A stretch of 64,000 nucleotides of DNA from Sulfurimonas sp. GTDB lineage: Bacteria > Campylobacterota > Campylobacteria > Campylobacterales > Sulfurimonadaceae. Made by a program: the position numbers and the translations under genes. Positions within the stretch are counted from its first letter, which is position 1. Each line of letters begins with the position of its first letter. Shown piece by piece: positions 335-63,221 of the stretch. Under the pieces are notes generated by a model. It was not told the DNA's origin. It searched no databases and saw only the letters and a list, made by a program, of their open reading frames with translations. The DNA lies in NCBI GenBank assembly GCA_011391635.1, contig JAABQD010000001.1, positions 186,001 through 250,000 on the forward strand, read 5' to 3'.

Positions 335-982
335 TTAAAAACTTACTTTTTTGTAGAACTTTTTGAGTCCTCGTTTGGCTTTTGTATCCAAATCGTATGA
401 AATAAATTCTAAATACTCTATAATGTCCTTTGATGCTATATTTGTTCTTGTTGCTGCCTGTTTTAGTATGTATTGTGGTATTTTTATTTTCTGTTTTAGA
501 AAGTTTTTTTGGATTTTTTTATAGAGATTTTTCTCTTTGTGATAACAAAGAAGAGCAAATACAAAAGGGAGTTTATATTTTTGATTCCACTCTTTTGCTA
601 AATCCACATGCCGCTTATTTTGAAGGTAGTATCGCAGTGCTTTATCACCGATAATCACTTCACCCTGCACACCCAAGATACGAGCAAGAACATTCGATGT
701 TGCAGAATCTTTATCTACGATATCTTTGGCATGTGGAATGACTAAAACACTCCGAACCTCTTTTTTTGCGATAATTCCCAAATCCACATGCCGATATTTT
801 TTAGCTGTGATACTTGAAATAAATGCAGCATCCACACGACGCGATGCAAATTTTTTATTTATGTTGGAAGGGACACCTTTTTTGTAGTGAATACTCATGC
901 TTTGTTGACTACTAGAGAGAAATCGCTTCATGAAAATATGAAAAGGTAAAAGATTCAGATACTCAATTTTTCCAAAAATCAT
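335..982 (-). CDS. mqnA: Chorismate dehydratase, menaquinone synthesis by the futalosine route
   Basis: A 215-residue protein opening with GKIEYLNLLPF, the substrate-pocket start typical of MqnA, a solute-binding-like fold that converts chorismate to 3-enolpyruvoyl-benzoate. Other family-like segments are RRVDAAFISSI and the GDKALRY stretch near residue 110. The futalosine route is the usual way to menaquinone in Campylobacterota. The gene is AT-rich in its C-terminal half and contains three perfect copies of the dispersed 10-mer, read as HVD and PHA. A TATAAT-type box upstream on the reverse strand (1012-1017) is divergent from the moaD promoter. Confidence 0.85.
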   Translation of the reverse strand: MIFGKIEYLNLLPFHIFMKRFLSSSQQSMSIHYKKGVPSNINKKFASRRVDAAFISSITAKKYRHVDLGIIAKKEVRSVLVIPHAKDIVDKDSATSNVLARILGVQGEVIIGDKALRYYLQNKRHVDLAKEWNQKYKLPFVFALLCYHKEKNLYKKIQKNFLKQKIKIPQYILKQAATRTNIASKDIIEYLEFISYDLDTKAKRGLKKFYKKVSF

Positions 983-1011
983 CTCACTACTCCAACAAAT
1001 TTGTTAGAGGA

Positions 1012-1017
1012 ATTATA
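1012..1017 (-). promoter_or_regulatory. -10 box for mqnA
   Basis: The reverse strand reads TGTATAAT about 30 bases upstream of the mqnA ATG, a perfect TATAAT hexamer preceded by TG. It is back to back with the + strand -10 box at 1038, making a compact divergent promoter region. Confidence 0.55.
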
Positions 1018-1037
1018 CATTGATTAGCTTATTTTGA

Positions 1038-1043
1038 TATAAT
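1038..1043 (+). promoter_or_regulatory. -10 box for moaD-moaE-moeA
   Basis: A perfect TATAAT 33 bases before the moaD start codon in an AT-rich stretch. The likely transcript start is near 1050. Confidence 0.6.
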
Positions 1044-1075
1044 CATCCTCATAATATAGTGCATGAGGAGCCATT

Positions 1076-1297
1076 TTGGTACGCGTAGATTTTTTAGGTC
1101 CTATTCAAAAAGCACCACTCGAATTAGAGATTACAAATTTAAGTGAGTTAGCTCTCATTTTACAAAAAGATACAGAGTTATCGCAGTGGCTGAGCAACTC
1201 TGCAGTAGCTCTCAATGATACTCTTGTCAATTCATTGGATGTTGCTCTAAAAGATGGGGATAGAATCTCTTTACTCCCTCCAGTTTGTGGAGGCTGA
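1076..1297 (+). CDS. moaD: Molybdopterin synthase small subunit (sulfur carrier)
   Basis: A 73-residue ubiquitin-fold protein that ends in the diagnostic double glycine (LPPVCGG), which is thiocarboxylated and donates sulfur to precursor Z in molybdopterin synthesis. The start is a TTG, chosen because an AGGAG site lies 5 bases upstream and no ATG gives a better length. The usual family length is 75-85 residues. moaE follows after four bases, and the GGAGG that codes for the last residues also serves as the moaE ribosome-binding site. Confidence 0.85.
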   Translation: MVRVDFLGPIQKAPLELEITNLSELALILQKDTELSQWLSNSAVALNDTLVNSLDVALKDGDRISLLPPVCGG

Positions 1298-1301
1298 AAA
1301 A

Positions 1302-1748
1302 GTGTTAAGCCTCTATGATGGTGCATTAAATGTCCCTAAAATTTTACAAGATTGGTATGAAGAAGAAGCAAAAAGCAACTACGGTGCTTATATCCCTTTT
1401 GTAGGGACTGTACGCGATGAAGATGGTATCGAGGGGCTAAGCTTCGACATCTATGAACCTATCCTTGAGAGCTGGTTCAAAACATGGCAAACAAAAGCCA
1501 AAGAGAGTGGCGCAATCATCAAAATGGCACATAGTCGTGGAGATGTTCTTTTACACGAATCTTCTTATATCGCAGCAGTTTTTTCTCCTAAACGCCGTGT
1601 AGCACTTGAGTTTATAGAAAAATTTGTAGAAGATTTTAAAGCCTCCGCACCTATATGGAAATATGATTTAAGAGACGGAGCAAGAATTTACGCACTCTCT
1701 CGTTCTACAGCCATCCAAGGAAGCGGTATTTTAGGAGTAAAAAATTGA
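1302..1748 (+). CDS. moaE: Molybdopterin synthase catalytic subunit
   Basis: A 148-residue protein from a GTG start placed 9 bases after a GGAGG within the end of moaD; a longer in-frame extension overlapping moaD adds residues not expected for the family. The segment GAYIPFVGTVRDED resembles the MoaE GA-x-FxGxVR motif. The tail KYDLRDGARIYALSRS also fits. MoaE binds the thiocarboxylated MoaD tail and inserts both sulfurs into the pterin. Its end overlaps the start of moeA by three bases, so the three genes form one operon. Confidence 0.85.
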   Translation: MLSLYDGALNVPKILQDWYEEEAKSNYGAYIPFVGTVRDEDGIEGLSFDIYEPILESWFKTWQTKAKESGAIIKMAHSRGDVLLHESSYIAAVFSPKRRVALEFIEKFVEDFKASAPIWKYDLRDGARIYALSRSTAIQGSGILGVKN

Positions 1749-2956: not shown

Positions 2957-2967
2957 CAGATGTTACA

Positions 2968-4044: not shown

Positions 4045-4197
4045 ATTCATCCAATATAGTAAATTTTACAACCCATTGCATCCGTGGCATGAAGTCATTT
4101 GGGTGGATTGTAACATGATTTCATTAACAATGCATCTCCACTTTCCACATGCCACAATTAATTTTAAATTTTAAATTTTTGTTTTTATTTTGTATGA

Positions 4198-5513: not shown

Positions 5514-6713
5514 TTATCTTTTCACTCCAAAAATAAGAACCTTCGCATATCTGCCGCTCCAAACCAAAAAGAGAATGAGCCACAAACTCAAAGAGATATC
5601 AAACAAAAAGCTCCATTCCAGCCCAAAAGCAACACTCATACTATACAAAGCTCTCATAAGTACAACAATCTGAATCAACCAAAAAAGATTTGTAGTCACT
5701 CTATCGGCATGTGGACTTTGCCCAGAGTGTCCGAGTGTGACGCGTGTTCCAAAGCCAATGAGAATCGTTGTCAAGAAACCAATGGAGAGGAGATGATTAT
5801 TGAAAAAATAAAAATCCATTCCAAAAAAGAGTTCGCCACTCACACTCAAAGCAGATAAAAACAGACCAAGAGGAAGCCACAAGAGTGCCAGATGAAGCAC
5901 CCACAAAATCGCAGGGGCGTGAAATGGAGAGAGTTTCCATCTCCTAAACTCTTGCAACAAATAGATGCCAAGCAAAATATCCACTAGAATTTCAACAGCT
6001 TTGATTTCCAAGGCACTCGCAACAGATTTCAAAAGAAAAAGGGCAAAAACAATCTTCATAAACTGCTCATTTTTGGGTGCATGTGCGTGTGAGAAAAAGG
6101 GAACCATCCTCTGAGCAACACTCAACCCTAAAAATACCAGATACATATAAAAAGAGAGACTCACGGCACTGCCAAAAAGTTGCGTTTGTATTTCCACATG
6201 CCGAGTTAGTTCAATAACGATAAAAAGAAGATGCCCTAAAAGTCCAAAATAGTTGGCGGTTAAAATCCAAAAAGGGTCTTGCTTCTGAGGCATCGCACCT
6301 GTGCGATAGATATGTTGTAGCTTGAGAACAACAAAAATTTGCGATACAAAAAGGAGCGTCATCCCAAGAATCAAAAGTGAATGATTCCAAAAAGAGCCTC
6401 CTATAAAGAGGAGCGTTCCTACGATATTTGCATAAAAAATCTTTGTATAAAACTGCTTAGGTATCACTTGGCATTGGCAAAATTTTGGAAATGTGGTAAA
6501 CAAAAATCCTGTAAAAAAGTTTGAAAATACAATAAAAATAAGAGAGTATGCGTGAAAATTCACACTCCACATATTGAGCCAAATAACGCCTTTGTAGCTA
6601 AGTCCAAAAAGAAGCATCATTACCAAAGAGGTTACGACGCCAAAGAGAAAAAATGGCTGATGTGGCTGAGATAAAAAATAGTTGTCCTGTTTTGCTTGGG
6701 TTTGAAACTTCAT
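5514..6713 (-). CDS. nnrS: NnrS family haem/copper membrane protein
   Basis: About 399 residues, almost entirely hydrophobic, with around 12 membrane segments. The family outline is clear: QPFFLFG near the start, FHAYSLIFIVFSNFFTGFL, a histidine pair in FSHAHAPKNE near the middle, and FGTRVTLGHSGQ near the end. NnrS proteins are haem- and copper-containing membrane proteins linked to resistance to nitric oxide. The start is placed at the ATG seven bases after an AGGA site; the TTG two codons upstream is less likely. It follows the radical SAM gene after nine bases and is probably co-transcribed. Confidence 0.85.
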   Translation of the reverse strand: MKFQTQAKQDNYFLSQPHQPFFLFGVVTSLVMMLLFGLSYKGVIWLNMWSVNFHAYSLIFIVFSNFFTGFLFTTFPKFCQCQVIPKQFYTKIFYANIVGTLLFIGGSFWNHSLLILGMTLLFVSQIFVVLKLQHIYRTGAMPQKQDPFWILTANYFGLLGHLLFIVIELTRHVEIQTQLFGSAVSLSFYMYLVFLGLSVAQRMVPFFSHAHAPKNEQFMKIVFALFLLKSVASALEIKAVEILVDILLGIYLLQEFRRWKLSPFHAPAILWVLHLALLWLPLGLFLSALSVSGELFFGMDFYFFNNHLLSIGFLTTILIGFGTRVTLGHSGQSPHADRVTTNLFWLIQIVVLMRALYSMSVAFGLEWSFLFDISLSLWLILFLVWSGRYAKVLIFGVKR

Positions 6714-6722: not shown

Positions 6723-7973
6723 CTAAAATAAATAATCTCTACCGATTTTTTTGCAGTATGCACCGAGCATTGCTCTCTCAAAATCGTTGTTGGTCGCATA
6801 CTCATACCCAAACGCCTCTTTCCACATGCCATGATCTTCCATGCATAAGTAAAAAAATACATCTCTATGCCAAGGTGCAAAACTCTCATACGCTGACTTA
6901 AACATCTCTAACTTTGTGGCATGTGGATAGGAACTTTTGCCACTTGCATCGGCATGTGGAATCTGCGTGATTTTTGTTCTAAACTCTCGCTCTCGAAGTT
7001 TTTTTATAACTGGTTTTATAAAAGTGAGTGTTCCAAAACTCACAAGTGCGACCTCGCTAGGGTCGAATTTTAGTAGGAGTTCGTTATAAACTGCTTGATA
7101 CTCATCAAGATAACCTTCGTACTCGACAATCGGATGAAAGTGAAAACCGACTTTTACACCTTTATCCGCCAAGGCTCTTGCGGCATTTATGCGTTTATCA
7201 AGCGAAGCTGTAAGATGCTCCTCATTTTCGATAATGGTCGGCGTGTTGAGTGACCATGTGCAAAAAATATTTTTTGGAACATCATTTTGCAAAAAATATT
7301 TGATGTTGTCGGACTTGGTTTTAAACTCCAAAATGACATGTGGATTTTCTCGTGCAAAAAGAAAAAGAGCATCTAAAATCCCTTCACGATTTCCCCACAT
7401 AAGCGAATCTGAACTCTGTCCAGTACCGATGTGGTAGGATTTGTTTTTATCGAGGTTGAGATTTTTAAGTTTCTGGGCAAAACCGCTGTCAAAAGTAATG
7501 GTATTTTGCTTGTAAAAACTCTGGATAGAGCAGTAAGAACAATCAAATCCGCAACTCTCCACAGCGTCAAGTGTGAGAAGATTACAGCATCTGGTTTTCT
7601 CACTCGCCACAGGACAAAGCCCCAAACCAAACCCCTCTTTTTGCACCGTTGTAAAGGAGTATTTTTGCTCTTGCGGCATATTTTTGAGCGTAAAATTTTT
7701 ATAGGAGTTAGGAGCATTTCGTATCGCTTCATACGCTTTTTTGAGCCTAGTAAAAACCACTTTTTTCTGCTCATGCTCAGGGAATATTTCGATGATACTT
7801 TTCTCATTCCACATGCCAAGGTCACGAGCCATATCAACTATCTGCTTGAGTTCTTGATGTGAAAAGCCAAACCGATGTGCTTTTTCTTTTATAAACTCCT
7901 GTTCGGCATGTGGAAGTTTTTCAAACAATGTATTTATAGTTGCGTTGTTAAATTTATCTGTATAGGAATTCAT
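6723..7973 (-). CDS. SplB-like radical SAM protein (spore photoproduct lyase family)
   Basis: A 416-residue protein with the radical SAM cluster motif CGFDCSYC (CX3CX2C) near residue 139, preceded by the Cys-rich NPCPVASEKTRCCN-like stretch (residues 119-131) and followed by the HIGTGQSSDSLMW and FHFHPIVEYEGY segments seen in SplB-type DNA repair enzymes and their relatives in non-spore formers. Its substrate here is unknown; a DNA lesion is possible by family. Five perfect copies and one near copy of the dispersed 10-mer lie in this single gene, the densest cluster in a non-cobalamin gene. Confidence 0.8.
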   Translation of the reverse strand: MNSYTDKFNNATINTLFEKLPHAEQEFIKEKAHRFGFSHQELKQIVDMARDLGMWNEKSIIEIFPEHEQKKVVFTRLKKAYEAIRNAPNSYKNFTLKNMPQEQKYSFTTVQKEGFGLGLCPVASEKTRCCNLLTLDAVESCGFDCSYCSIQSFYKQNTITFDSGFAQKLKNLNLDKNKSYHIGTGQSSDSLMWGNREGILDALFLFARENPHVILEFKTKSDNIKYFLQNDVPKNIFCTWSLNTPTIIENEEHLTASLDKRINAARALADKGVKVGFHFHPIVEYEGYLDEYQAVYNELLLKFDPSEVALVSFGTLTFIKPVIKKLREREFRTKITQIPHADASGKSSYPHATKLEMFKSAYESFAPWHRDVFFYLCMEDHGMWKEAFGYEYATNNDFERAMLGAYCKKIGRDYLF

Positions 7974-8020: not shown

Positions 8021-8116
8021 GCTTGATTGTAAAAATAAGGCATCTCTAAAAAAACATTTTCACTTCGCAAAAAGCGGTATCCTTGTTTTGGAAATATCTT
8101 GGCATGTGGAAATGTA

Positions 8117-9720: not shown

Positions 9721-9900
9721 TTCTCGTTCCACCTTTCCCAAGGTGGAATGCATATCGCAAGTAAAATTGCCAAAAATTTTCAATCTGTTCAATTATGGCA
9801 TTATTCACATATGCCGAGATGTTCGATTTATTGGCATGTGGAAGTTTTATAAAATAGTAGTTTAAGTAGGCATTCCACCTTGGGAAAGGTGGAACGAGAA
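9721..9900 (+). repeat. REPIN-like element, copy 1 (180 bp)
   Basis: A 180-bp element with perfect 31-bp inverted ends (9721-9751 and 9870-9900; two more outer bases also pair). Each end is itself a hairpin, TTCCACCTT-TCCC-AAGGTGGAA, so the element is two palindromes in opposite orientation, as in REPINs. The middle holds a perfect copy of the dispersed 10-mer (9833-9842). A near-identical element lies at 15618. No coding capacity is seen. It fills most of the gap between the EVE and AbiEii genes. Confidence 0.85.
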
Positions 9901-11489: not shown

Positions 11490-11623
11490 GAGATTGAGTA
11501 TAACATAAAGTTTATTATTTTATATAGATAATCCAATTTAATCATATTTTATATGTGTTAATAATGATTTTTTATTTGCTGTAACCAGCAAATATCTTGG
11601 CATGTGGAAATATTTTTTAGCTC

Positions 11624-12607
11624 CTATTCCTTGTTAGCTTTTTTTCTATTTTTTATTAACTCCGTTAAAGGTGAATGACTAGGATAAAGAACTTTAGCTG
11701 ATGGAATATCCATTGAAGCTAAATCTAAATGAGAATCTTGATCATCAAAAAATATGTGTGGCTTGAAGGCTTTTAAAAAACGACTTTTTTCTAGTCCACC
11801 GAGAAAAAATGCTTCATCAACATATACATCCCAATCTCTAAGTGTTTTAATTACTCTCATTTCCGCTGGAGAATTTCGTGCTGTCATAATGGCTAATCGA
11901 ACAGGTGAAAATTCTTTACGACCAGGAAGGCGTTCTTGCATTTTTGACAATTTTATTAATAGATTGGCATGTGGACCTCTACTGAGCGGAGTGTCTTGCT
12001 TCTCATCTTCATTTTTATGAAATTCAGATAAACCTTCTGTTTGATTTATGATTTCACTCTCTTCATTGAAAATAACTGCATCTGCATCAAATGCAAAACG
12101 AACTTGATTTTCATTTAAATAATCACTCGATTTAGGAGGTGCTTTTACAATCGCTGCGGCACAAACATTACTATCCACTATTTTTTGGGCATCCTCTTCA
12201 TTTGTTGTTAAGAATAAATCAACATAAAATGCTTCAAGATAATCTACATTTGATTCACCAGCAGTAAAGGCTGACCTTGAAATTTTCAATCCTCTTCTTC
12301 TGATTTCTTTGAGCACTCTAAATCCTGTTTCTGGACTATTTCTAGACATTACAATTACTTCAACAATGGGACTTTCTCCATCTTTTTGAAATTCATTTAG
12401 TTTTAGCAATGCTTGAACTAATGGCATTCCCGTACCATCTTTTAAGGGTTTATCTTCATTTTCAAGCATATATTTTCTGTACTCTTCAATAGCTGTATCA
12501 CGATCTTGTTTATGTGTTTCTTGAAATATTTTATCTGCTTCTGACAAATCAAATAAAGCAGTTGCAGATATTCCGATGACTAATGATTCTGATAAATCTA
12601 ATGCCAT
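11624..12607 (-). CDS. 5'-nucleotidase (cytosolic NT5C1-like)
   Basis: A 327-residue protein that fits the cytosolic 5'-nucleotidase I family: LVIGISATALFDLSEADKIF near the start, EVIVMSRNSPETGFRV near 85, and the late HAD-like stretch EAFFLGGLEKSRFLKAFKPHIFFDDQD. These enzymes dephosphorylate nucleoside monophosphates. It stands alone, with the dispersed 10-mer at 11599 just after its end. The 164-base gap upstream holds the divergent promoter of the DUF1538 operon. Confidence 0.75.
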   Translation of the reverse strand: MALDLSESLVIGISATALFDLSEADKIFQETHKQDRDTAIEEYRKYMLENEDKPLKDGTGMPLVQALLKLNEFQKDGESPIVEVIVMSRNSPETGFRVLKEIRRRGLKISRSAFTAGESNVDYLEAFYVDLFLTTNEEDAQKIVDSNVCAAAIVKAPPKSSDYLNENQVRFAFDADAVIFNEESEIINQTEGLSEFHKNEDEKQDTPLSRGPHANLLIKLSKMQERLPGRKEFSPVRLAIMTARNSPAEMRVIKTLRDWDVYVDEAFFLGGLEKSRFLKAFKPHIFFDDQDSHLDLASMDIPSAKVLYPSHSPLTELIKNRKKANKE

Positions 12608-15066: not shown

Positions 15067-15108
15067 AGCTCTCTTGAGAGTTTGTACTGCGAAGAGAGGT
15101 TAGTTGGC

Positions 15109-15573
15109 ATGTGGAAATCTTTTACTCTTTATATCGATGCGGATGCTCTTCCAAATCTACTCAAACCTGTCCTCGTACGCACCATTGAAAAATTAAATAT
15201 TTCTACTTTTGTCGTTTCAAACAAAAGAGTGGAAATCGGCAAATCAAAACATATAAAGTACATTATAGTCGAAGCAGGGGCGGATGAAGCGGACAATAAA
15301 ATCGTAGAACTCATACAAGAGAATGACCTCACCATCACCGCCGATATCCCCCTCGCAGACAGAGTCATCAGCAAAAATGCACATGCCATAGACCACAGAG
15401 GCGAACTCTACAGCGTAGACAATATCAAGCAGTATCTCGCAATGCGAAATCTTATGGAAACCATACGAGACAGCGGTGAAATCACAAAAGGTCCACCACC
15501 CTTCACGCAAAAAGATGTAGAAAAGTTCGCAAATCAGCTTAATATGTTTGTGCAGAAGTATTATCGAGTTTAA
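15109..15573 (+). CDS. YaiI/YqxD family (DUF188) protein
   Basis: A 154-residue protein with the family opening LYIDADALPN, the stretch VVSNKR, GADEADNKIVELIQENDLTITADIPLADRVISKNAHAIDHRGELY and the tail GPPPFTQKDVEKFANQLN. It is a PIN-like fold of unknown function. The start codon is the ATG inside a perfect copy of the dispersed 10-mer (15106-15115), nine bases after GAGAGG; a TTG nine codons upstream is less likely because the family begins close to the YIDAD strand. Confidence 0.8.
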   Translation: MWKSFTLYIDADALPNLLKPVLVRTIEKLNISTFVVSNKRVEIGKSKHIKYIIVEAGADEADNKIVELIQENDLTITADIPLADRVISKNAHAIDHRGELYSVDNIKQYLAMRNLMETIRDSGEITKGPPPFTQKDVEKFANQLNMFVQKYYRV

Positions 15574-15617: not shown

Positions 15618-15797
15618 TTCTCGTTCCACCTTTCCCAAGGTGGAATGCATATCACAGGTAGAATTACCAAAATTATTCAGCTCATTCAATCATAGCACTA
15701 TTCACACATGTCGAGATGTTTGATTTATTGGCATGTGGAAGTTTTATAAGATACTAGGTTAAGTAGGCATTCCACCTTGGGAAAGGTGGAACGAGAA
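15618..15797 (+). repeat. REPIN-like element, copy 2 (180 bp)
   Basis: Same length and same 31-bp inverted ends as the element at 9721 (ends 15618-15648 and 15767-15797), in the same orientation. The inner part has scattered substitutions, yet the dispersed 10-mer at 15730-15739 is intact. Its right end stops one base before the stop codon of the HIRAN gene. The two copies bracket 5.7 kb. Confidence 0.85.
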
Positions 15798-16530: not shown

Positions 16531-16737
16531 TACTTACTACCTAATTATCTCACAACAGGGACTTATTTGTTTAAATTATAGTTAATTAAGACTTAATATA
16601 AATAACAGAACACAAAAAAGTAGAACCAAAACTTTTCTAGTTCCCATGTGGAAATATCTTGGCATGAGACGGCGAAAATAAGCTGAATGAGTTCAGGTTA
16701 TTTTTGACTATGATATCTTGGCATGTGGAAACATCTT

Positions 16738-16773: not shown

Positions 16774-17862
16774 TTAAAATTCAGATGCGTTATCTACCAC
16801 AAACTCCCCTCGCACTTTTTCCTCCCCATTTATCAAAACAGAGATAAAGTGTTGCCCGATGTAATGCTTTCTTGTGGTCATATCTTTAAAACTCTGTTTT
16901 TTGGTAAAGGTTTTATGAGTGGTCTCAAGGCGTCCTTGGGTGAGCATAAACACTTTTTTATTGTGGCGGTTGTTTGCTTTGAGGTACTCTATTGCGTACT
17001 CTATGCGGATATTTTCGATGGGTTCTTTTGCGTTTAGCTCAAATGAAAAGTGCAACGCATTGCCTATTTTTACCGCCTTGCCACAAACAAAATTTTCGAT
17101 GCTTACATGGGGTAAACTTTGCAGATTAAAAAGCTTTAGTATCGCACTGTCGCCTTTTTTGAGCAAGGTTCGTGAGGCGTGTTTGCATATCCAGTCAAGC
17201 TCTTTGGAGAAACCTTGATTGTTTTTGACAAACTGAATGAGTGTTTGCGGATGGTCTTTTGAGATGTCGTTGAGACTATTTGCGACCGATTTTCGTACAT
17301 AGAGGCTTGGGTCGTTTTTGAGTAGTTCTATGATTAGTAAAACTTTTGAAGGCTCTTTTTTAAACTTCGGCAGTGCCACCGCCCATGGAAGTCTAGGGCG
17401 ACACCCCTCACAGGCGAGTCGTCTGAGATGTTCGTTGTCACTTTTTGCCCATGCAATCATCTGCTCTAAAGTCTGCTCTTCATATTTGAGGATAAATTGT
17501 CGCACTGCAAATTCACTGCTTGAACCAATCGTAAAAACCTCCAAAGCCTCCATCGATAATTCAAAATCATCCAGCCCGAAAACCTCTACAAAATCCTGAA
17601 AAAACATCGCTTCAAAAGAGCCAAAATCTTTTGAAGTGGTTTTTAAAATAGTCAGTTGTTCAGCATACGAGAGTGGCAAAAAGCGGTGAAGTTGCAGGGC
17701 GATATGCCTCATTCTTGCCTTGAGTTCCAAGCTCTCCCAAACATCACAAAAAACCGACGCACGAAAGTTTTGCTCATCAAAATCGGTGTAATGGACTTTG
17801 ACTTTGTTCGCTAAGTTTGCGATATATGCGTGCGTATAGCTGTTTTTGAGCGGTTCTGGCAT
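16774..17862 (-). CDS. DNA alkylation repair protein, AlkC-like HEAT repeat
   Basis: A 362-residue protein starting MPEPLKNSYTHAYIANLANK, then FDEQNFRASVFCDVWESLELKARMRHIALQLHRFLP, which follows the AlkC family closely, and HEAT-like helices (EHLRRLACEGCRPRLPWA, PSLYVRKSVANSLNDISKDHP). AlkC/AlkD glycosylases remove alkylated bases. The start codon is the ATG inside a dispersed 10-mer (17858-17867) and has AAGGAAG eight bases upstream; the frame is open 44 codons further but lacks family sequence there. The C-terminal 100 residues form an extra beta-rich domain. Confidence 0.8.
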   Translation of the reverse strand: MPEPLKNSYTHAYIANLANKVKVHYTDFDEQNFRASVFCDVWESLELKARMRHIALQLHRFLPLSYAEQLTILKTTSKDFGSFEAMFFQDFVEVFGLDDFELSMEALEVFTIGSSSEFAVRQFILKYEEQTLEQMIAWAKSDNEHLRRLACEGCRPRLPWAVALPKFKKEPSKVLLIIELLKNDPSLYVRKSVANSLNDISKDHPQTLIQFVKNNQGFSKELDWICKHASRTLLKKGDSAILKLFNLQSLPHVSIENFVCGKAVKIGNALHFSFELNAKEPIENIRIEYAIEYLKANNRHNKKVFMLTQGRLETTHKTFTKKQSFKDMTTRKHYIGQHFISVLINGEEKVRGEFVVDNASEF

Positions 17863-17995
17863 GTGGATACTTCCTTTTGTTTTTTCGTCCATTTGTTGTT
17901 GTTTCGTTTGTGTCTGCTTGAATTTTAGCAAAAATTGAAAATTTGTGATTTTTTTAGAGTTGAAATTTTTTAAATTTTTTTGTGCTACAATCAAA

Positions 17996-43640: not shown

Positions 43641-43645
43641 GTGGA

Positions 43646-46546: not shown

Positions 46547-46951
46547 TTACAATATTTGAGCTAAAAAATAGTATCTTAAAACCCTTAAACTTCCCGCAAT
46601 TATAACAAACCAAACAAACCTGAGCCTTATAACACCCGCAACAAGTGTGAGTGGATCGCCGATGAGTGGAAGCCAAGAAAAGGGCAAAATAAAGTAACCA
46701 TACTTATTTCCACATGCCAAACCTCTCGTGCCGATTTTTGATTTTGTGAGTTTTGTTTTTGTTTTTTCATAGAGCCAGAAGCCTAGCCAGTAATTGAGTG
46801 TGATGGCTAAAATATTTCCGCTTGAAGCAGAAATCATGGCATGTGGAAGTGTCATTCCATCAGAGAGTGCAAGTAAAAAAGTGGCTTCAGAGCTGAGAGG
46901 AAAAATGGTTGCCGCAAGAAAAGCGGAGAGAAAAAGCGCTAGTTCTGGCAT
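46547..46951 (-). CDS. YqaA family (SNARE-associated) membrane protein
   Basis: A 134-residue membrane protein: FPLSSEATFLLALSDG near the start, SASSGNILAITLNYWLGF, and FSWLPLIGDPLTLVAGVIRL in the third segment, the outline of the YqaA/DedA-like family. The start ATG sits inside a dispersed 10-mer (46947-46956) and has no clear ribosome-binding site. Function unknown; related proteins affect membrane lipid turnover and envelope homeostasis. Confidence 0.78.
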   Translation of the reverse strand: MPELALFLSAFLAATIFPLSSEATFLLALSDGMTLPHAMISASSGNILAITLNYWLGFWLYEKTKTKLTKSKIGTRGLACGNKYGYFILPFSWLPLIGDPLTLVAGVIRLRFVWFVIIAGSLRVLRYYFLAQIL

Positions 46952-46975
46952 GTGGATTGAAACTATAACAACGAA

Positions 46976-52408: not shown

Positions 52409-53971
52409 TTAAATATATCTCGGAACAACTATCTCTAAAGAGCTTAAAATCTCTTCATTTTTCTCTTCACTCTCAAAGTAATTATACTCTTTATGTGCTT
52501 CTTTTTCTTGTCGTTTTTGCCCTTGGTTTTGCTGCTGATTTGTACCAGCATTATCCGAACTGCTATTGAAGTTCAGAGTAGCATTATTTATACCATTATT
52601 ATTCAACTGTGTTTTTAACTCCGCTGCATTCACTGCCAAGGTATTAATCGCAGTTGTATTTGAACTAATATTCACATGCAAATTTTTGCCTCTTTGAACA
52701 ATTGTCAACTCTACCTCACCTAATTGTTGTGGATTAAGCTGTACTTTAACTCTTGTAAATGGTGCTTTATACTCTTCTATAGCAGTTCTCACATCCGCTG
52801 AGAGATAACGAATCATCTGTTTTGCTTCATTAAGTTTGACTTCAAAACTATCTGCTTTTAATGTTGTAACACCCTCTACTTTAGAATTTTTCGTACTCTC
52901 ACTTTTTGTTTCTGTATCTCCATAAAGAAGTTTGTCAAAAGCATTTGCAATCCCTTTGTCATTCTCAGAGTTACTAGCTTCTATTGCATTCGAAGCAACT
53001 ACAGAAACATTGCTTGCAAGTGCAGAGACGCTCTGCGATGGTTTTTCACCATGAAGAAGTGATTTGAGTGTCTCATCTGCTCTATTTTTTGTTGCTTTTT
53101 CTTCCGCTTTTAATAATCCGCTTGTTTTAGAATGAACTAATTGCTCTGTCGTATGTTCTAAAGATTCTTGAGCTTTAAAAAGTGGTGTAGCTTTTACCTC
53201 TTTTGTTTTCAACTCTTCAGCATTGATTACTTTTTTAAGTTCAATCGCTTCTTTATCAAATGTTTCTACTTTTATCTCTTTATTGGCATGTGGAACTTCT
53301 GCTTTTGCCTCTTTTAGCTGTGAAACTTCTGTTTTACTCTCTTTGTTGGCATGTGGAACTTCTGCTTTTGCCTCTTTTAGCTGTGAAGTTTCCGTTTTAG
53401 TCTCTTTATTGGCATGTGGAACTTCTGCTTTTTTTTGTTGCACATCTTCTATGCTGATTTTGCTCACATCAATATTAAACTTTTTCGCTAACTCCGCTAA
53501 TCCTTTGAGTGTTTTTGGAAGCTCCCCAGTTTCTGCTTTTTTATACTCTTCACTACTCAAAATTTTAGATTTTAGATACTCTTTTGCATTTGCGATGAGA
53601 GTTTTTAATTCGCTTGGACTCATCATAGAAGCTAATTTAGGATTCAGCTCTAGTGACTCTTGCATCTGAGAGGAAGTTTTATCACTATTTTTGAGGAGTG
53701 TCATAAGTGATTCAGTTTTTGAAACTGCTTTTGAAGCTGTTTTTGAGACTTTTTCTTCACTGTTGAGGGCTAAGACAACAGCACCATTTTGCACTGTTTT
53801 ACTCTCTTTTTTCTCTTGTGATAATGCGATTGCTGCTTTGGTATCTTTTTTTTCACTCGCACCTTTGAGGAGTTCTGCAAAAGAGAGGGTTGGCTCTTTT
53901 TCTGATGTTTTTGAGGCTTTTGCCCCAGACGAAGTTGGAGCTGATTCTGGTTTTATATCAAATGAAATCAT
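52409..53971 (-). CDS. fliK: Hook-length control protein, FliK-like
   Basis: A 520-residue, mostly disordered protein rich in Lys, Glu, Ser. The C-terminal domain near 395-470 shows the FliK pattern VKLNPQQLGEVELTIVQRGKNLHVNI, which switches export from hook to filament. The middle has a tandem repeat of 21 residues (unit KAEVPHANKE and following) encoded by 63-bp repeats, each with a dispersed 10-mer. Repeat number would alter ruler length. A sigma-54-like promoter precedes it. Confidence 0.85.
   Translation of the reverse strand: MISFDIKPESAPTSSGAKASKTSEKEPTLSFAELLKGASEKKDTKAAIALSQEKKESKTVQNGAVVLALNSEEKVSKTASKAVSKTESLMTLLKNSDKTSSQMQESLELNPKLASMMSPSELKTLIANAKEYLKSKILSSEEYKKAETGELPKTLKGLAELAKKFNIDVSKISIEDVQQKKAEVPHANKETKTETSQLKEAKAEVPHANKESKTEVSQLKEAKAEVPHANKEIKVETFDKEAIELKKVINAEELKTKEVKATPLFKAQESLEHTTEQLVHSKTSGLLKAEEKATKNRADETLKSLLHGEKPSQSVSALASNVSVVASNAIEASNSENDKGIANAFDKLLYGDTETKSESTKNSKVEGVTTLKADSFEVKLNEAKQMIRYLSADVRTAIEEYKAPFTRVKVQLNPQQLGEVELTIVQRGKNLHVNISSNTTAINTLAVNAAELKTQLNNNGINNATLNFNSSSDNAGTNQQQNQGQKRQEKEAHKEYNYFESEEKNEEILSSLEIVVPRYI
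53279..53430. repeat. 63-bp tandem repeat inside fliK
   Basis: Two full units and a partial third, with perfect 10-mers at 53285, 53348 and 53411, exactly 63 bases apart. The first two units differ at only a few positions. The unit is a multiple of three, so repeat number can change without a frameshift. Confidence 0.85.
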
Positions 53972-54051: not shown

Positions 54052-55029
54052 CTATAATACAGCGAATGGTTTGACATCCTCTCTCGAAGCAAATGGTGCA
54101 CTACTCATCTGAACTTCATCTATCGAAACCATATAACTCTCATGAATATTCGTTTTGCAATAGGTTAAAATAATCTTTACAGCCAACTCTCTATCTGCTT
54201 GTGTGGCATTTGCACTGAGCATGGCATGTGGACCAACTAACCCTACGGTGGAGAGATGAAAATATTTATCATTCATAATATTTTGTAAATGTGCATTTTC
54301 TGCTTGGTCTCTTCCTACAACAAGTTTTGCCCCATCGCTCAAGCGAAAATGGCGTCCGTACTTCATCAATGGAATATCTCTGACTTCAAATGTATCATAT
54401 TTGATAAAGTCAAACATCTTTTTCCCAAAATGCTCATCTGTCAAAAGACAGCCACCACCTGGACTTTCAAAATCTTCAAGCCCTATCTCTTTTGCCAACT
54501 CCATCTGTCTATCACGGCTTCTTCCCGTAATGCCTTCGAGTTTTTCTCTATCCACCCACCCATTTGTTTCGGCGATTGTGGGTGCCAATCTTTTTGCACT
54601 TAAGGGACGAAGCAAAAGTCCATTACAATTGCTCTCATTCAAAACTGTTTGGAGTGCATCTTTATTTTGGCTCATTGGGCGTTGTCCCATCACTTCACCG
54701 CTTATAAGAAATGAAGCACCTTCTGCTTCCATGATTCTTTTTGCAACTGCAAACATTTTTGCATGACAATCGATGCAGGGATTAAAATTTTTTCCATATC
54801 CATATTTTGGGTCAAAAAGAACATCCTGAAGATATTCGCTCTGAATATCTATGATTTTGAGTTCTGCTCCAACTTGGTCGCACATACTCTGCATATGCGT
54901 CAGTCTATCTTTTGTACTTCCAAAACCTGTGTTGATATTTACAGCCAACACTTCTATACCTTGGTCAATAATAAGTTTTATAGCCAGAGTCGAATCTAAT
55001 CCACCGCTAAAGAGTGCGATTGCTTTCAT
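54052..55029 (-). CDS. PP-loop ATP pyrophosphatase, probable tRNA-modifying enzyme
   Basis: About 325 residues with the N-type ATP pyrophosphatase motif ALFSGGLDSTLA at residues 4-15, then NPCIDCHAKMFAVAKRIMEAEGASFLISGEVMGQRPMSQ near 85-125, and a second Cys in SPGGGCLLTD near 205. The PP-loop, CxxC and later Cys resemble ThiI/MnmA-type sulfur transferases. A tRNA thiolation role is inferred; the exact base is unknown. The start was set at the ATG of MKAIALFSGG, as the upstream eight codons do not fit. Confidence 0.75.
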   Translation of the reverse strand: MKAIALFSGGLDSTLAIKLIIDQGIEVLAVNINTGFGSTKDRLTHMQSMCDQVGAELKIIDIQSEYLQDVLFDPKYGYGKNFNPCIDCHAKMFAVAKRIMEAEGASFLISGEVMGQRPMSQNKDALQTVLNESNCNGLLLRPLSAKRLAPTIAETNGWVDREKLEGITGRSRDRQMELAKEIGLEDFESPGGGCLLTDEHFGKKMFDFIKYDTFEVRDIPLMKYGRHFRLSDGAKLVVGRDQAENAHLQNIMNDKYFHLSTVGLVGPHAMLSANATQADRELAVKIILTYCKTNIHESYMVSIDEVQMSSAPFASREDVKPFAVL

Positions 55030-55071
55030 GTTGTTTTTCCTTTGTTGAAGCACAAGAGTGGCATGTGGAAA

Positions 55072-56724
55072 TTAATCTCCAAAAGCTACCAGTTCACCTC
55101 GTTTTAATTTTGCAATTTTACCACGAAATTTTCTGATGTAAAAAGCTTTCTCTTCATATGGCATGTGGATTTGTAGCTGTACTTTTTTGTATTCTCTCTC
55201 GTAATGTTTGGAGAGAAAAGCTATGAGCTCCTGCTTAAGGGCTTCTTCATCTTGGAGAGCGTTAATATTATCATCCACCATAATCGCCATGAGCTGTGGA
55301 GCATCACGATGCCCTTGAAGAGCTAAAGAAAACTCTGATGCGTGAAACTGCAAAAGTGAAGGGTCAAGCACATCTAAAATCTGGTCTATAAAGTGCGGAT
55401 ATTCCAAAACTGTTTTAATAAGACTAAGTTCCCACATATCTTTATGCAAACTTTTTTGGACTAACGGAGCGTTTTGTTTGATGTTAGTTTGGTTTGTTAG
55501 TTTGATATATGAAGGATTAATGCCAAGTCTCTGAGCAAAATAATTTTTATATTTATCTTGTAAAATTGCAGAAAGTGTTTTGATGTAGGCTATCCCTTCG
55601 TGCATCGAACTCTCTTTTGCTTTTGGGTCATTGAGATTATAACTTGCGAGTAACTCATCCAGCACAAATTCGATAAAGGGCTGAGGCTTTCTAAAAATTT
55701 CCGCCAACTCAAGCACAGCACCTTTTGCAACCATATCGGCAGGGTCTAGTCCTCCGCCAAAGATAACAACACCACCAGAAAAGCCTGACACGCTGAGAAG
55801 TTTTGCAGCTTTGAGTGCGGCTGCACGACCTGCTTTATCTCCATCATACGCCATAATAACTTTTGCTTCGCCCTTTCTTAGAAGTGGTAAATGTTCAGGG
55901 GTAAGTGCCGTACCAAGTGTCGCAACTGCATTTGTAAACCCCGCTTGATGGAGCATAATAACATCAAGATACCCTTCGGTGATGATGATTTCTCGCTGTT
56001 TATAAATCTCCTGTTTTGCATGATGATACGCGTACAAAAGACGAGATTTGTTAAAAAATGGCGTCTCTGGAGAGTTTACATATTTGGCTTGATGCCCCGT
56101 GATAGTTCTTCCGCCAAACCCCACAATCGTGCCATTTGCCGAATGAATAGGGAAAGTAATCCGCTCAATAAATCTGGCAAAATATCTTCCTCCATCATAT
56201 CCGACCACGCCCATCTCTATGGCTTCACTTATATTAAAGAGCTGTGATTTAATGAAGTTGATGGTTGCATTGGAGTCAGGTGCATATCCTACACCAAACT
56301 TCTCAATACTGCTCTCATAAATTCCTCTTTGGCTCAAGTATTCTTGTGCGATATTATTGGAAGTAAGAAGATTTTTGTACCAATCATTGACTCTGTCCAT
56401 GAGGTGTGAGCGAGGTTTGTTTTGTTTGTTATCACTATAACCAAGGGAAAAGTTATAAGTTGAAGCAAGTTTTTCAAGAGCTTCTGGATAATTGAGTTTT
56501 TCATACTCCATCACAAATTTGACACTATCGCCACCCACGCCACAGCCAAAACAGTGATAAATCTGTTTTTGCGGACTCACAGTAAATGAGGCAGTTTTTT
56601 CACCATGAAAAGGGCAAGGTGCTTTGAAATTTGCACCTGACTTTTTGAGTTCCAAATAGGAGCCAACAACATCAACAATATCAAGTCGTGCTTTTAAAGC
56701 TTCTATGGAGTCTTGGGTTATCAT
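55072..56724 (-). CDS. dnaG: DNA primase
   Basis: A 550-residue protein: CHC2 zinc finger (CPFHGEKTASF, then HCFGCGVGGD; residues 37-66), the primase core with GFGGRTI near 205, TOPRIM motif ITEGYLDV near 250 and MAYDGDKAGRAA near 300. The C-terminal helicase-binding domain is short. It lays RNA primers at the replication fork. Normal for Campylobacterota. Confidence 0.95.
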   Translation of the reverse strand: MITQDSIEALKARLDIVDVVGSYLELKKSGANFKAPCPFHGEKTASFTVSPQKQIYHCFGCGVGGDSVKFVMEYEKLNYPEALEKLASTYNFSLGYSDNKQNKPRSHLMDRVNDWYKNLLTSNNIAQEYLSQRGIYESSIEKFGVGYAPDSNATINFIKSQLFNISEAIEMGVVGYDGGRYFARFIERITFPIHSANGTIVGFGGRTITGHQAKYVNSPETPFFNKSRLLYAYHHAKQEIYKQREIIITEGYLDVIMLHQAGFTNAVATLGTALTPEHLPLLRKGEAKVIMAYDGDKAGRAAALKAAKLLSVSGFSGGVVIFGGGLDPADMVAKGAVLELAEIFRKPQPFIEFVLDELLASYNLNDPKAKESSMHEGIAYIKTLSAILQDKYKNYFAQRLGINPSYIKLTNQTNIKQNAPLVQKSLHKDMWELSLIKTVLEYPHFIDQILDVLDPSLLQFHASEFSLALQGHRDAPQLMAIMVDDNINALQDEEALKQELIAFLSKHYEREYKKVQLQIHMPYEEKAFYIRKFRGKIAKLKRGELVAFGD

Positions 56725-58807: not shown

Positions 58808-58903
58808 ATTATCTTCCTCTAAAAATAAATTTCCACATGCCAAACATTCAAAAATAATTCTATTTTCAACCAAACAAACTTATTCCCAGTTGTCAAACGC
58901 AAA

Positions 58904-60001: not shown

Positions 60002-60555
60002 TATACTTTTTTCAAAAACTCTGTTTTGAGGAAGATTTTAGTACCATTTACTCTTCCTTCGATATGGTCGTCAATGTCTGCTGGAAGTGCAATTCGTGTT
60101 ACAGTCGTTCCGCGTTTTGCAGTAAAACCAGCACCTTTAACTTCTAAATCTTTCAAGATAACTACGCTATCTCCAGCTTGAAGAATGACACCATTTGCAT
60201 CTTTATGGACGATTTTACTCGCGGTTGCATTCAGTGTGGAATCCGCCCATTTTTTCTCATCTTCTTCCAAATACATCATCTCAACCAAATCTTGACGACC
60301 TAGTTTGTTTAGTAAAATATAGCTCATAACTTTCACAGCAGGAACTTCACTCCACATGCTGTCATTTAAACAATTAAAGTGATTTTCATCCAATGTTTCA
60401 TTTTTGATTTGTTCTTGGCATGTGGAACATGCGTAGATGGATTGCTCAGAACTTCCATCTGAGGGTGCTACTTCTAAAATACCCAAACCTTCACTACTTC
60501 CGCAAAGTTCACACACTCCGCCACTTCTTGCAATTAACTCTTTTTCTGTATTCAT
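60001..60555 (-). CDS. PhnA/YjdM-like zinc-ribbon protein
   Basis: A 184-residue protein with a zinc ribbon of CELCGSS and CSTCQE (residues 14-17 and 43-46) and the C-terminal PhnA domain: VHKDANGVILQAGDSVVILKDLEVKGAGFTAKRGTTVTRI. Despite the name, the family function is not clearly phosphonate use. The CSTC codons are written by a dispersed 10-mer at 60417-60426. Confidence 0.85.
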   Translation of the reverse strand: MNTEKELIARSGGVCELCGSSEGLGILEVAPSDGSSEQSIYACSTCQEQIKNETLDENHFNCLNDSMWSEVPAVKVMSYILLNKLGRQDLVEMMYLEEDEKKWADSTLNATASKIVHKDANGVILQAGDSVVILKDLEVKGAGFTAKRGTTVTRIALPADIDDHIEGRVNGTKIFLKTEFLKKV

Positions 60556-61906: not shown

Positions 61907-61948
61907 TAAGTACCTTTTGTATTAGCCAAAAAAGGCTAAATTTGGGGC

Positions 61949-61954
61949 ATTATA
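61949..61954 (-). promoter_or_regulatory. Extended -10 box for rhlE
   Basis: Reverse strand AATGCTATAATGCC, 43 bases before the rhlE ATG. A small hairpin (TTAGCC with GGCTAA, A6 loop) lies in its leader. Confidence 0.6.
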
Positions 61955-61986
61955 GCATTATTTCAACGCTCAAAGTACATTTACGC

Positions 61987-61992
61987 TATAAT
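61987..61992 (+). promoter_or_regulatory. -10 box for the helicase-lobe-like gene
   Basis: CGCTATAATTGTG, perfect TATAAT 48 bases before the ATG at 62040, divergent from the rhlE promoter. Confidence 0.6.
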
Positions 61993-62039
61993 TGTGTAAC
62001 TATTTTGCCGTATTACGAGCAAAGCACTCAAGGATTTTT

Positions 62040-62984
62040 ATGCCATCTACTTCACCAGCTCTCAAACGCCACAATCATCGTGTTCATCCATGCCAAACAG
62101 AAAAAAAACAAGAGCTTCTTCATTTGCTCCTTGAAAAACACAAAGAAAAAAATATTCTTGTTGTCACATGTGGCACTCCTGAAGATATTAAACTTTCAAA
62201 CAATGTAACTGTTATGAATGATGATGATTTACTCAAAACACCAGAACTTTTGGTAGAACTCCTTATCAGTTATGATTTACCACAAAAAGGCATAGAATAT
62301 ATGGCTCGTATCGCTCATGCGATGACTTATGCACTCATTTTACTTGATCAAGAAGAGGAAAAACTTCTCTATCCAATCGAAACACTTTTGGGGCGAACCA
62401 TTATGCAAGAACCTATTGATGGCTTCGGACCAGCAATTATTGTAAAAAAAGAGTTTGTTAAAAAAGAGTTCACTCCAAGAGATGAGAAAAAAGAGTATAA
62501 GCCAAGAAGCAATGACACTCGAGGTGAAAAGAAAAAATTTGGCGACAAACCATTCAGAGATGATAAACCTCGCTCGAACAAGCCTTATGACAAAGATAAA
62601 AAAGATGAGAAGTCAGGTTTTAAAAAACCTTACGATAGAGATAAAAAAGAGGATAAGTTTGGTGCTAAAAAACCGTGGGACAAAGAGAAAAAAGATGGCA
62701 AATCTGACTTCAAAAAACCTTACGATAAAGATAAAAAAGAGACAAAGTCCGATTTTAAAAAGCCTTATGACAAAAATGCCAAACCTGATTTTAAAAAGCC
62801 TTACGACAGAGATAAAAAAGATTCAAAATTTTTAGGCAAAGATGAGAATGGAAAAGCGATTTTTTCTGGCAAATCAGGTGAGCGAAACCACCGCTATGAT
62901 GGTTCTAAAAGAGAAGATACTCCTGTACTTAGTGGTAAAAAAATAAATGTAAAAGTATTTAAAAAACCTACAACTAAAGAGTAG
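62040..62984 (+). CDS. Lone helicase second-lobe-like protein with basic repeat tail
   Basis: A 314-residue protein. Residues about 14-135 align by eye with the second lobe of the adjacent RhlE: VHPCQTEKKQELLHLLLEKH versus [20 protein letters not shown], and YDLPQKGIEYMARIAHAMTYALILLDQEEEK versus [21 protein letters not shown] and onward. The RGRTGRAG arginines of motif VI are absent (ARIAHAMTYA), so ATPase activity is not expected. From about 145 on, it is a very basic, repetitive tail (units like DFKKPYDKDKKE). It may bind RNA. The start MPSTSPAL was chosen for promoter spacing. Confidence 0.65.
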   Translation: MPSTSPALKRHNHRVHPCQTEKKQELLHLLLEKHKEKNILVVTCGTPEDIKLSNNVTVMNDDDLLKTPELLVELLISYDLPQKGIEYMARIAHAMTYALILLDQEEEKLLYPIETLLGRTIMQEPIDGFGPAIIVKKEFVKKEFTPRDEKKEYKPRSNDTRGEKKKFGDKPFRDDKPRSNKPYDKDKKDEKSGFKKPYDRDKKEDKFGAKKPWDKEKKDGKSDFKKPYDKDKKETKSDFKKPYDKNAKPDFKKPYDRDKKDSKFLGKDENGKAIFSGKSGERNHRYDGSKREDTPVLSGKKINVKVFKKPTTKE

Positions 62985-62990
62985 AAATTT

Positions 62991-63209
62991 CTACTCTTTA
63001 TTATACTCGAGCGTCTCTTTTGATTCTGATTTTTCAGATGGTTTGAGCGATGCTTTTGCTGCCTCTTCTTCACTATATTTTACACACTCTTTTGGCATTG
63101 TGGCCTGTGGATCTGATGCTATCCTTTGACACATCTCTGCGTTAAATGTCATATTGGCACATCCCGCAAAAATGAGTGCGGATGCTACTAGAATAATCTC
63201 TTTTGGCAT
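62991..63209 (-). CDS. Small lipoprotein, 72 residues
   Basis: A lipoprotein signal (IILVASALIFAGCANM, lipobox FAGC) then a short chain with two more cysteines (EMCQRI, KECVKYS) and a charged end. The start ATG lies in a dispersed 10-mer (63205-63214), with AAAGGA six bases upstream. Family unknown. It lies between a convergent gene and thyX, with which it shares a strand. Confidence 0.7.
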   Translation of the reverse strand: MPKEIILVASALIFAGCANMTFNAEMCQRIASDPQATMPKECVKYSEEEAAKASLKPSEKSESKETLEYNKE

Positions 63210-63221
63210 GTGGAATCCTTT

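What the first reader, a model, noticed from the sequence alone, without database searches (positions are those of the whole stretch)
603..63214. A dispersed 10-base motif with the behaviour of a DNA uptake sequence
GGCATGTGGA occurs about 52 times without mismatch in 64 kb (32 on one strand, 20 on the other). From base composition I expect about 0.05-0.1. The copies lie in unrelated genes, in gaps, on both strands and in several reading frames, so protein coding does not explain them; copies in gaps often share a longer form, ATCTTGGCATGTGGAAA. Density near one per 1.2 kb and inverted pairs at gene ends are the known traits of DUS in Neisseria (GCCGTCTGAA) and USS in Haemophilus (AAGTGCGGT). 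Campylobacter uptake is known to rely on a methylated RAATTY site, and I know of no DUS-like repeat in this phylum. The function is inference; the enrichment is seen.
Basis: partly seen in the sequence, partly recalled or inferred. Interest (0 to 1): 0.96.

Follow-up and report, generated by a model that had tools for sequence, protein, structure and literature searches.

The report
Self-DNA uptake tags in Sulfurimonas
A 10-letter DNA word is scattered about 1,300 times through the genome of a bacterium of the Sulfurimonas group and likely works as a self-label for taking up DNA; relatives carry other words at similar density, and a pilus protein is predicted to read them.

Summary
GGCATGTGGA occurs 52 times in the window (chance 0.10) and 1,298 times in the 2.35-Mb assembly, evenly on both strands, against 2 for the word read backwards. 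It is enriched in gaps and between convergent genes and has a rigid inner core. The genome belongs to the Sulfurimonas genus (Campylobacterota). Of 89 congeners, 6 share the word at full strength; others carry TAAACGCAG, CTCACGCAG or TTACATGTA, in non-overlapping sets of genomes. The three nearest relatives compared hold decaying relics. This is how DNA uptake sequences (DUS) and their dialects look in Neisseriaceae; my searches found no DUS report for this phylum. Candidate reader: a FimT/GspH-like minor pilin, whose tree follows the TAAACGCAG dialect against the gyrB tree and which was replaced in the relic lineage. Against it: two genomes failed a prediction, one word-bearing genome has another pilin type, and some drafts lack the gene. 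Uptake itself is untested.

The parts
603..612 (-). motif copy
728..737 (+). motif copy; inverted pair with 783-792
783..792 (-). motif copy; inverted pair with 728-737
4144..4153 (-). motif copy
5706..5715 (+). motif copy
6193..6202 (-). motif copy
6821..6830 (-). motif copy
6918..6927 (+). motif copy
6951..6960 (+). motif copy
7808..7817 (-). motif copy
7905..7914 (+). motif copy
8101..8110 (+). motif copy
9833..9842 (+). motif copy
11599..11608 (+). motif copy
11966..11975 (+). motif copy
15106..15115 (+). motif copy
15730..15739 (+). motif copy
16720..16729 (+). motif copy
17858..17867 (+). motif copy
18938..18947 (-). motif copy
22316..22325 (-). motif copy
22450..22459 (+). motif copy
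27037..27046 (+). motif copy
29706..29715 (+). motif copy
30420..30429 (-). motif copy
31962..31971 (-). motif copy
32149..32158 (+). motif copy
36439..36448 (+). motif copy
36572..36581 (-). motif copy
36797..36806 (-). motif copy
36812..36821 (-). motif copy
37157..37166 (-). motif copy; inverted pair with 37188-37197
37188..37197 (+). motif copy; inverted pair with 37157-37166
37612..37621 (-). motif copy; inverted pair with 37648-37657
37648..37657 (+). motif copy; inverted pair with 37612-37621
40854..40863 (-). motif copy
43494..43503 (+). motif copy
43636..43645 (+). motif copy
44722..44731 (-). motif copy
46102..46111 (-). motif copy
46709..46718 (-). motif copy
46838..46847 (+). motif copy
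46947..46956 (+). motif copy
53285..53294 (+). motif copy, one of three spaced 63 bases apart in a repeat
53348..53357 (+). motif copy, one of three spaced 63 bases apart in a repeat
53411..53420 (+). motif copy, one of three spaced 63 bases apart in a repeat
54223..54232 (+). motif copy
55060..55069 (+). motif copy
55160..55169 (+). motif copy
58832..58841 (-). motif copy
60417..60426 (+). motif copy
63205..63214 (+). motif copy

Best explanation
GGCATGTGGA is a 10-base tag present about 1,300 times in this Sulfurimonas-genus genome, likely a DNA uptake sequence by which competent cells would favour DNA of their own kind, probably read by a FimT/GspH-like minor pilin. [quoted passage not shown] the filament retracts them through the secretin, ComEC passes one strand to the cytoplasm and recombination fixes it. 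Because tagged alleles would be taken up more often, exact copies would accumulate and stay pure (biased uptake). When a lineage acquires a pilin with another globular domain, the old tags would lose their upkeep and decay while a new word builds up; this would give the dialects and relics seen across the genus. Shown here: the motif, its counts, placement, dialects, relics, the pilus/ComEC genes, and the gyrB-versus-pilin tree conflict. The confidence given is for the uptake-sequence reading; the pilin as its reader I hold at about 0.5.
For: Count, control and even strands. Enrichment in gaps (28.5% of copies in 10.4% of sequence), 4.8 copies per kb in convergent gaps, inverted pairs that fold at -14.8 to -23.7 kcal/mol. 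Rigid core: 270 exact copies but 15 single-mismatch sites at positions 2-8 (10.4 expected by a third-order Markov model), while position 9 tolerates C or T (31 sites). Dialects: GGCATGTGGA at 300 or more in 7 of 90 genus genomes incl. this one, TAAACGCAG at 80 or more in 16 of 100, CTCACGCAG at 200 or more in 5 of 100, TTACATGTA at 200 or more in 12 of 90; these four sets share no genome. Relics: the three nearest relatives among the genomes compared (gyrB 95%; of G161 only 277 residues) hold 226, 179 and 165 GGCATGTGG; in samples, G159 has 7 exact and 24 one-mismatch copies (3.9 expected) spread over all ten positions, G069 0 and 11 (1.4 expected). Machinery. Reader: pilin family whose model aligns to FimU, EpsH and FimT; 10 of 11 TAAACGCAG genomes' pilins fall in one starred clade of 13 although gyrB splits those genomes over distant branches, and each data set rejects the other's grouping (AU p 0.0005 and 0.0004). 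In the relic lineage the pilin is 51% identical to this genome's while gyrB is 95-96%, and 68-69% identical to that of G040, whose gyrB is 89%; its N-terminal helix is 88-92% like this genome's, the globular domain 39-40%. For all seven proteins of the dnaA-side pilus cluster tested, G000 is closest to the relic genomes, as by gyrB. The priA-linked pilin does not follow dialect in 12 genomes.
Against: No uptake or binding data. In the control two of seven cluster proteins are mixed: the GspI-like pilin and GspD of G163 or G165 are in some pairs closer to G172/G051 than to G000, as FimT is. Under the richer model the pilin clade had 84/94 support and held 9 TAAACGCAG rows. The calculated pI of 14 family members runs from 4.6 to 9.6, so charge alone does not mark it as DNA-binding. 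A near-full-length pilin is found in 62 of 100 genus genomes and not in several strong-dialect drafts, such as G056 with 859 copies; in 5 of 9 loci examined, all five from genomes of one or two contigs, the gene lies next to 16S rRNA, which drafts often lose, and 14 of 14 genomes listed with at most 10 contigs have it, but a true absence in G056 is not excluded. AU tests were named after seeing the trees. Many congeners are metagenome drafts.
Confidence: 0.82

Rival explanations
1. It is a DUS, but read by another pilus protein (for example the pilin beside priA, in the position of Cj0683 of C. jejuni, or a pseudopilin of the dnaA-side cluster); the FimT-like pilin varies for other reasons. 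(This rival lies inside the uptake-sequence reading.)
For: Cj0683 precedes priA and is essential for starting DNA uptake in C. jejuni (PMC10046745 passages); this genome has two pilins beside a priA-like gene (priA named by eye); the FimT-like gene is not found in G056 and other drafts; two genomes broke the FimT prediction; the GspI-like pilin of the dnaA side shows a mixed pattern.
Against: The priA-linked pilin does not follow dialect in 12 genomes (6 changes, shuffled mean 6.1, as low in 129 of 200); three of four dnaA-side pilins follow the species pattern in 8 genomes; only the FimT-like pilin shows the replacement coincident with relics.
Confidence: 0.32
2. It is a binding site of a chromosome-organising, replication or recombination factor (Chi-like, KOPS-like or nucleoid protein), kept by selection on chromosome upkeep.
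For: Genome-wide, frequent, rigid; words of this length are known for such factors (recalled).
Against: No strand polarity in the whole assembly (644/654) or in the three other pieces left of dnaA on contig 1 (18 plus, 20 minus; window 32/20); enrichment in gaps and as inverted pairs; change of word between close relatives with relics, which a conserved chromosome factor would not predict.
Confidence: 0.07
3. It is a transcription terminator or RNA-level element, or a small mobile repeat (REP/MITE-like).
For: Inverted pairs fold into hairpins; density peaks in convergent gaps.
Against: 186 of 270 copies lie wholly in genes, in all frames; flanks are near background beyond about 4 bases on the left and 3 on the right, which excludes spread of a longer element.
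Confidence: 0.04
4. It is a restriction-modification recognition site.
For: Campylobacter uptake depends on a methylated site (PMC10046745 passages).
Against: An asymmetric contiguous 10-base word is unusual for such enzymes, and their sites are usually not enriched (both recalled). Not tested: no methylase was sought and no methylation data were available.
Confidence: 0.03

Closest known systems
DNA uptake sequence (DUS) and its dialects in Neisseriaceae, read by the minor pilin ComP
   Same: Short word, very many copies, both strands, genes and gaps, inverted pairs at gene ends, rigid inner and looser outer bases, dialects in related species, a minor pilin as (here candidate) reader. Compared with passages of PMC3630211 and the abstract of PMC3868556.
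   Different: Other phylum, other word, and larger dialect differences: the words found here fall into at least two unlike groups (CATGT-type and ACGCA-type), whereas the abstract of PMC3868556 speaks of Neisseria commensal variants differing by one or two bases; dialect here conflicts with the gyrB tree, whereas a passage of PMC3630211 reports congruence of dialect and phylogeny. Function not tested.
Uptake signal sequence (USS) of Pasteurellaceae, receptor predicted to be ComN/PpdA
   Same: Genome-wide uptake word held to be of independent origin, with a minor pilin as predicted reader (PMC12616744: listing and one passage).
   Different: Word and phylum differ; no relation between ComN and the pilin here was tested.
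FimT of Legionella pneumophila (GspH/FimT minor pilin that binds DNA)
   Different: Legionella FimT binds through an arginine-rich, flexible C-terminal tail; the family here ends in a conserved EPETGYAHIL-like stretch and has two invariant cysteines. Pfam gives only the N-terminal methylation motif.
Campylobacter jejuni uptake (Cts T2SS/T4P system, methylated RAATTY, Cj0683)
   Same: Same phylum, T2SS/T4P-type machinery, a pilin-like gene beside priA (PMC10046745 passages).
   Different: Self-recognition there rests on methylation of a short degenerate site; here on a 10-base word whose methylation was not tested.

Membership tests
DUS/USS-type uptake sequence | short word strongly over-represented across the whole genome | tested here: met
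   1,298 copies, reversed control 2
DUS/USS-type uptake sequence | both strands, genes and gaps, no element-like flanks | tested here: met
   644/654; six frames, 28.5% in gaps, flanks near background
DUS/USS-type uptake sequence | inverted pairs at gene ends | tested here: met
   20 pairs within 60 bases in 438 kb, 6 between convergent genes, 6 inside genes
DUS/USS-type uptake sequence | rigid inner bases, looser periphery | tested here: met
   mismatch spectrum in 438 kb
DUS/USS-type uptake sequence | dialects in relatives | tested here: met
DUS/USS-type uptake sequence | competence machinery in the genome | tested here: met
   two strong T2SSE genes in pilus-type clusters, 7 pilins over the cut-off, a secretin, a ComEC part at a contig end; ComEA and DprA not searched, other gene names by eye
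DUS/USS-type uptake sequence | a cognate receptor | tested here: inconclusive
   FimT-like pilin follows one dialect against gyrB, with failures
DUS/USS-type uptake sequence | the word raises uptake or transformation | not testable with these tools
   needs experiment
Neisserial DUS itself | GCCGTCTGAA or a near variant | tested here: not met
   GGCATGTGGA is a different word by inspection
GspH/FimT minor pilins | N-terminal methylation motif plus GspH/FimT globular fold | tested here: inconclusive
   N_methyl over the cut-off, just under it (19.9 against 21.2 bits); AlphaFold model pLDDT 86.9 aligns to FimU, EpsH, FimT, but Foldseek gave no match at E 0.001 and no Pfam GspH hit appeared
ComP | sequence or fold match to ComP | tested here: inconclusive
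   not among the rows

The most novel reading that the evidence does not exclude
A third, independent origin of self-specific DNA uptake, in Campylobacterota, in which species swap 'languages' by horizontal exchange of the globular domain of one minor pilin: after a swap the old genome-wide vocabulary decays neutrally and a new, unrelated word builds up, so that genomes carry a readable record of past mating partners. The same device extends beyond the genus, with palindromic words (TTACATGTAA-type, at least 1,293 and 1,406 sites in two genomes of family f20) hinting at a symmetric reader.
Probability: 0.42. Interest if true: 0.93.

Novelty: new variant of a known kind. Interest (0 to 1): 0.86.

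Why it matters
In the papers seen, uptake sequences are described for two bacterial families, Neisseriaceae and Pasteurellaceae; how they arise and change is an open question. Here one genus outside them holds at least four words in full, fading and absent states on one tree, so gain, loss and replacement can be followed step by step, and the candidate reader can be tested by simple deletion, binding and swap assays. It would also predict which of these bacteria exchange genes with each other.

Tried and rejected
Rejected: mobile repeat, terminator-only, Chi/KOPS-like and protein-coding explanations (see rivals). Literature searches (open-licence PMC papers only): the 10-mer itself (54 papers, 20 listings seen, none on this group), 'uptake signal sequence' + Sulfurimonas (0), DNA uptake sequence + Campylobacter + Neisseria (30, 20 listings seen), Sulfurimonas + natural transformation + competence (4), DNA uptake sequence + Epsilonproteobacteria (1), and a six-term search (586 papers, 40 listings seen, none of the 40 with either uptake term). 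None of the listings reports a DUS in this phylum; unlisted papers were not seen. Papers: passages of PMC3630211, PMC8897410, PMC10046745 and PMC12616744 (one passage); abstract and outline of PMC3868556; others in listings only.

Did not work: Foldseek gave only meaningless matches for the pilin; ComP did not appear. The prediction on G019 and G149, written in a note before analysis, failed; G149 instead shows CTTCACC 28 times in 19 kb, unexplained. Words such as CAAAAGAG or AGATGCTA in other congeners were not pursued. An over-represented word in G097 proved to be mostly a regular array. The genome scan with GspE brought 22 named loci. Independent pairs were too few to test. Sampled motif-rich relatives can lack the word locally: G075 (721 copies) has none in 14 kb.

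Rows left out: gyrB tree (54 rows) omits G006 (no match), G160 (same genome as G069), G161, G027, G150 and G058 (fragments); the pilin/gyrB comparison uses the 38 genomes that had both among those fetched. TAAACGCAG in G163, G165 and G172 was judged from 61-kb samples, not counted genome-wide.

Errors found and mended: G160 and G069 are one genome, so an 18-kb piece was counted twice for G069; one search recounts. In one search a wrong ORF stood for G029; replaced. Searches were script errors; one search was a report of the wrong form.
Full report
What was checked. GGCATGTGGA occurs 52 times in the window, 32 on + and 20 on -, where shuffles give 0.10. In the whole assembly (G000, 2,345,822 bases, 84 contigs) there are 1,298 copies, 644 and 654 by strand, and the word read backwards occurs twice. 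In 437,675 bases (the window plus 20 other pieces, some chosen for pilus genes, no repeated 60-mers in register) it is the commonest of all 10-mers, 270 copies. The enrichment is a property of the genome, not of this stretch.

Placement. By simple ORF calls, 186 of 270 copies lie wholly in genes in all six sense/antisense frames, and 77 lie in gaps that make up 10.4% of the sample. Copies are densest between convergent genes, 4.8 per kb against 0.62 per kb overall, and 20 neighbouring opposite-strand pairs start within 60 bases of each other and would fold into hairpins; 6 of the 20 are inside called genes. A looser frame surrounds the core: T at -2 and -1, A at +1, T at +3. Pairs closer than 120 bases number 57 against 19 expected, seven of them within one tandem array on contig 8.

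Purity. Among single-mismatch sites, positions 2-8 yield 15 sites where a Markov model expects 10.4, against 270 exact copies; position 9 yields 31 G-to-C or G-to-T sites. The inner bases are thus held exact. The abstract of PMC3868556 says inner DUS bases are essential and peripheral ones less important in Neisseria.

Who has it. Of 89 other genomes of the same genus, 6 have 314 to 859 copies, 5 have 31 to 141, and 78 have at most 13; 59 genomes of other families of the order have at most 7. On the gyrB tree the full-strength genomes are scattered (6 changes, shuffled mean 7.5). The genus is Sulfurimonas by inference: 18 of 22 named relatives' records are titled so, and congener G051 has a contig of 558,538 bases, exactly the length of one from a record titled Sulfurimonas endosymbiont of Alviniconcha.

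Other words. Counts of 7-10-mers in samples of relatives showed other dispersed words, then counted genome-wide. TAAACGCAG: 82 to 782 copies in 16 of 100 genomes, next 51; G000 has 6. CTCACGCAG: 267 to 397 in 5 of 100, next 33. TTACATGTA: 209 to 1,029 in 12 of 90, with 100 to 157 in 5 more (a palindromic site TTACATGTAA counts twice). The four full-strength sets share no genome. Variants AAACGCCA and AAACGCGA appeared in samples only. Outside the genus, G108 and G138 (family f20) have 2,573 and 2,807 strand-hits of TTACATGTA, that is at least 1,293 and 1,406 sites; in 20 kb of G108 they are the palindrome TTACATGTAA, 11 sites. G129 (family f7) has about 16 dispersed ATCATGATA sites in 20 kb.

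Relics. The genomes nearest to G000 by gyrB among those compared (95%) are G069 (the Lake Pavin draft), G159 and G161. They hold 179, 226 and 165 GGCATGTGG, against 10 or fewer in 17 of the other 19 genomes of that search, 15 in one more and 915 in G180, itself motif-rich. In samples the copies are mostly broken: G159 7 exact and 24 single-mismatch, G069 0 and 11. In the one region aligned, sites face forms such as GGCATGCGGA and GGCATGTAGA; 6 of the 12 sites there had no alignment in G159 and G069. That is what loss of upkeep would leave.

Machinery. G000 has a T2SS-type cluster beside a dnaA-like gene, a T4P-type cluster with a secretin, two pilins beside a priA-like gene, a ComEC part at a contig end, and a separate FimT-like pilin at C52:124-771. 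T2SSE, T2SSG, N_methyl, Secretin and Competence are Pfam matches; other gene names are by eye. ComEA and DprA were not searched.

Candidate reader. The FimT-like pilin is found near full length in 62 of 100 genus genomes (G000 included) at 39-57% identity to that of G000. In 5 of 9 loci examined, all five from genomes of one or two contigs, a 16S rRNA gene lies next to it, a place where drafts break, and all 14 genomes listed with at most 10 contigs have it. The AlphaFold model (pLDDT 86.9) aligns best to FimU, EpsH and, lower, Legionella FimT. In 38 genomes with both genes, 10 of 11 TAAACGCAG pilins, the AAACGCCA one and two others form one starred clade (98/90; 84/94 under a richer model). 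gyrB puts these genomes on distant branches: G163, G165 and G016 lie inside the clade of GGCATGTGGA genomes, G155 near the CTCACGCAG clade. FimT data reject the species grouping (p 0.0005) and gyrB rejects the pilin grouping (p 0.0004). In the relic genomes the pilin is not that of G000: 51% identity against 95-96% for gyrB, and closest to that of G040, which carries TTACATGTA 157 times; holding G000, G069 and G159 together is rejected at p 0.015. The N-terminal helix stayed (88-92%), the globular domain changed (39-40%). G069 itself has TTACATGTA only 55 times (reversed control 26), so a new word is at most beginning to build up there.

Controls and failures. Of seven other proteins of the dnaA-side cluster, all put G000 closest to G069/G159, and five put G163/G165 closer to G000 than to G172/G051; GspD and the GspI-like pilin are mixed. 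The priA-linked pilin does not follow dialect in 12 genomes. G019 and G149 have pilins of the TAAACGCAG clade but no AAACGC-type word in 19-20 kb. G063 has the word and another pilin. TTACATGTA pilins need 3 changes for 3 rows. Independent pairs agree about 3 to 0 with ties, p 0.25. G056, with 859 GGCATGTGGA, shows no such pilin even by profile. Calculated pI in the family runs from 4.6 to 9.6.

Known and new. The traits match DUS as described in passages of PMC3630211, including inverted pairs at gene ends and a minor pilin as specific binder. What differs: phylum, the words, their unlikeness to each other, and that dialect here runs against gyrB, while PMC3630211 reports congruence with phylogeny. 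C. jejuni, the studied relative, uses a methylated RAATTY site (PMC10046745 passages). The searches named under Tried and rejected found no DUS report for this phylum.

Noticed in passing
L025 (G000:C8) 299-434: Eight GGCATGTGGA copies head to tail at 18-base spacing, read through by a 67-residue open frame on the other strand.
   Followed up: partly
window 53260-53440: Three motif copies 63 bases apart in a repeated stretch inside an open frame on the opposite strand.
   Followed up: no
L206 (G108), L210 (G129): Palindromic dispersed words TTACATGTAA and TATCATGATA in two other families of the order.
   Followed up: partly
L200 (G099): AAATTTAT is over-represented (37 in 20 kb, 5.8 expected) in a family f11 genome; it contains an RAATTY site, the methylated uptake site known from C. 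jejuni.
   Followed up: no
L275 (G149): CTTCACC occurs 28 times in 19 kb (about 2.8 expected), 26 of them in genes; unexplained.
   Followed up: partly
L017 (G000:C19) 5015-7873: Two pilins beside a priA-like gene, the position of the competence gene cj0683 in C. jejuni, which PMC10046745 calls unique to Campylobacter.
   Followed up: partly
L018 (G000:C52) 124-4044: FimT-like pilin gene beside what look like ATP-citrate lyase genes (by eye) and, in five relatives of one or two contigs, next to 16S rRNA.
   Followed up: yes
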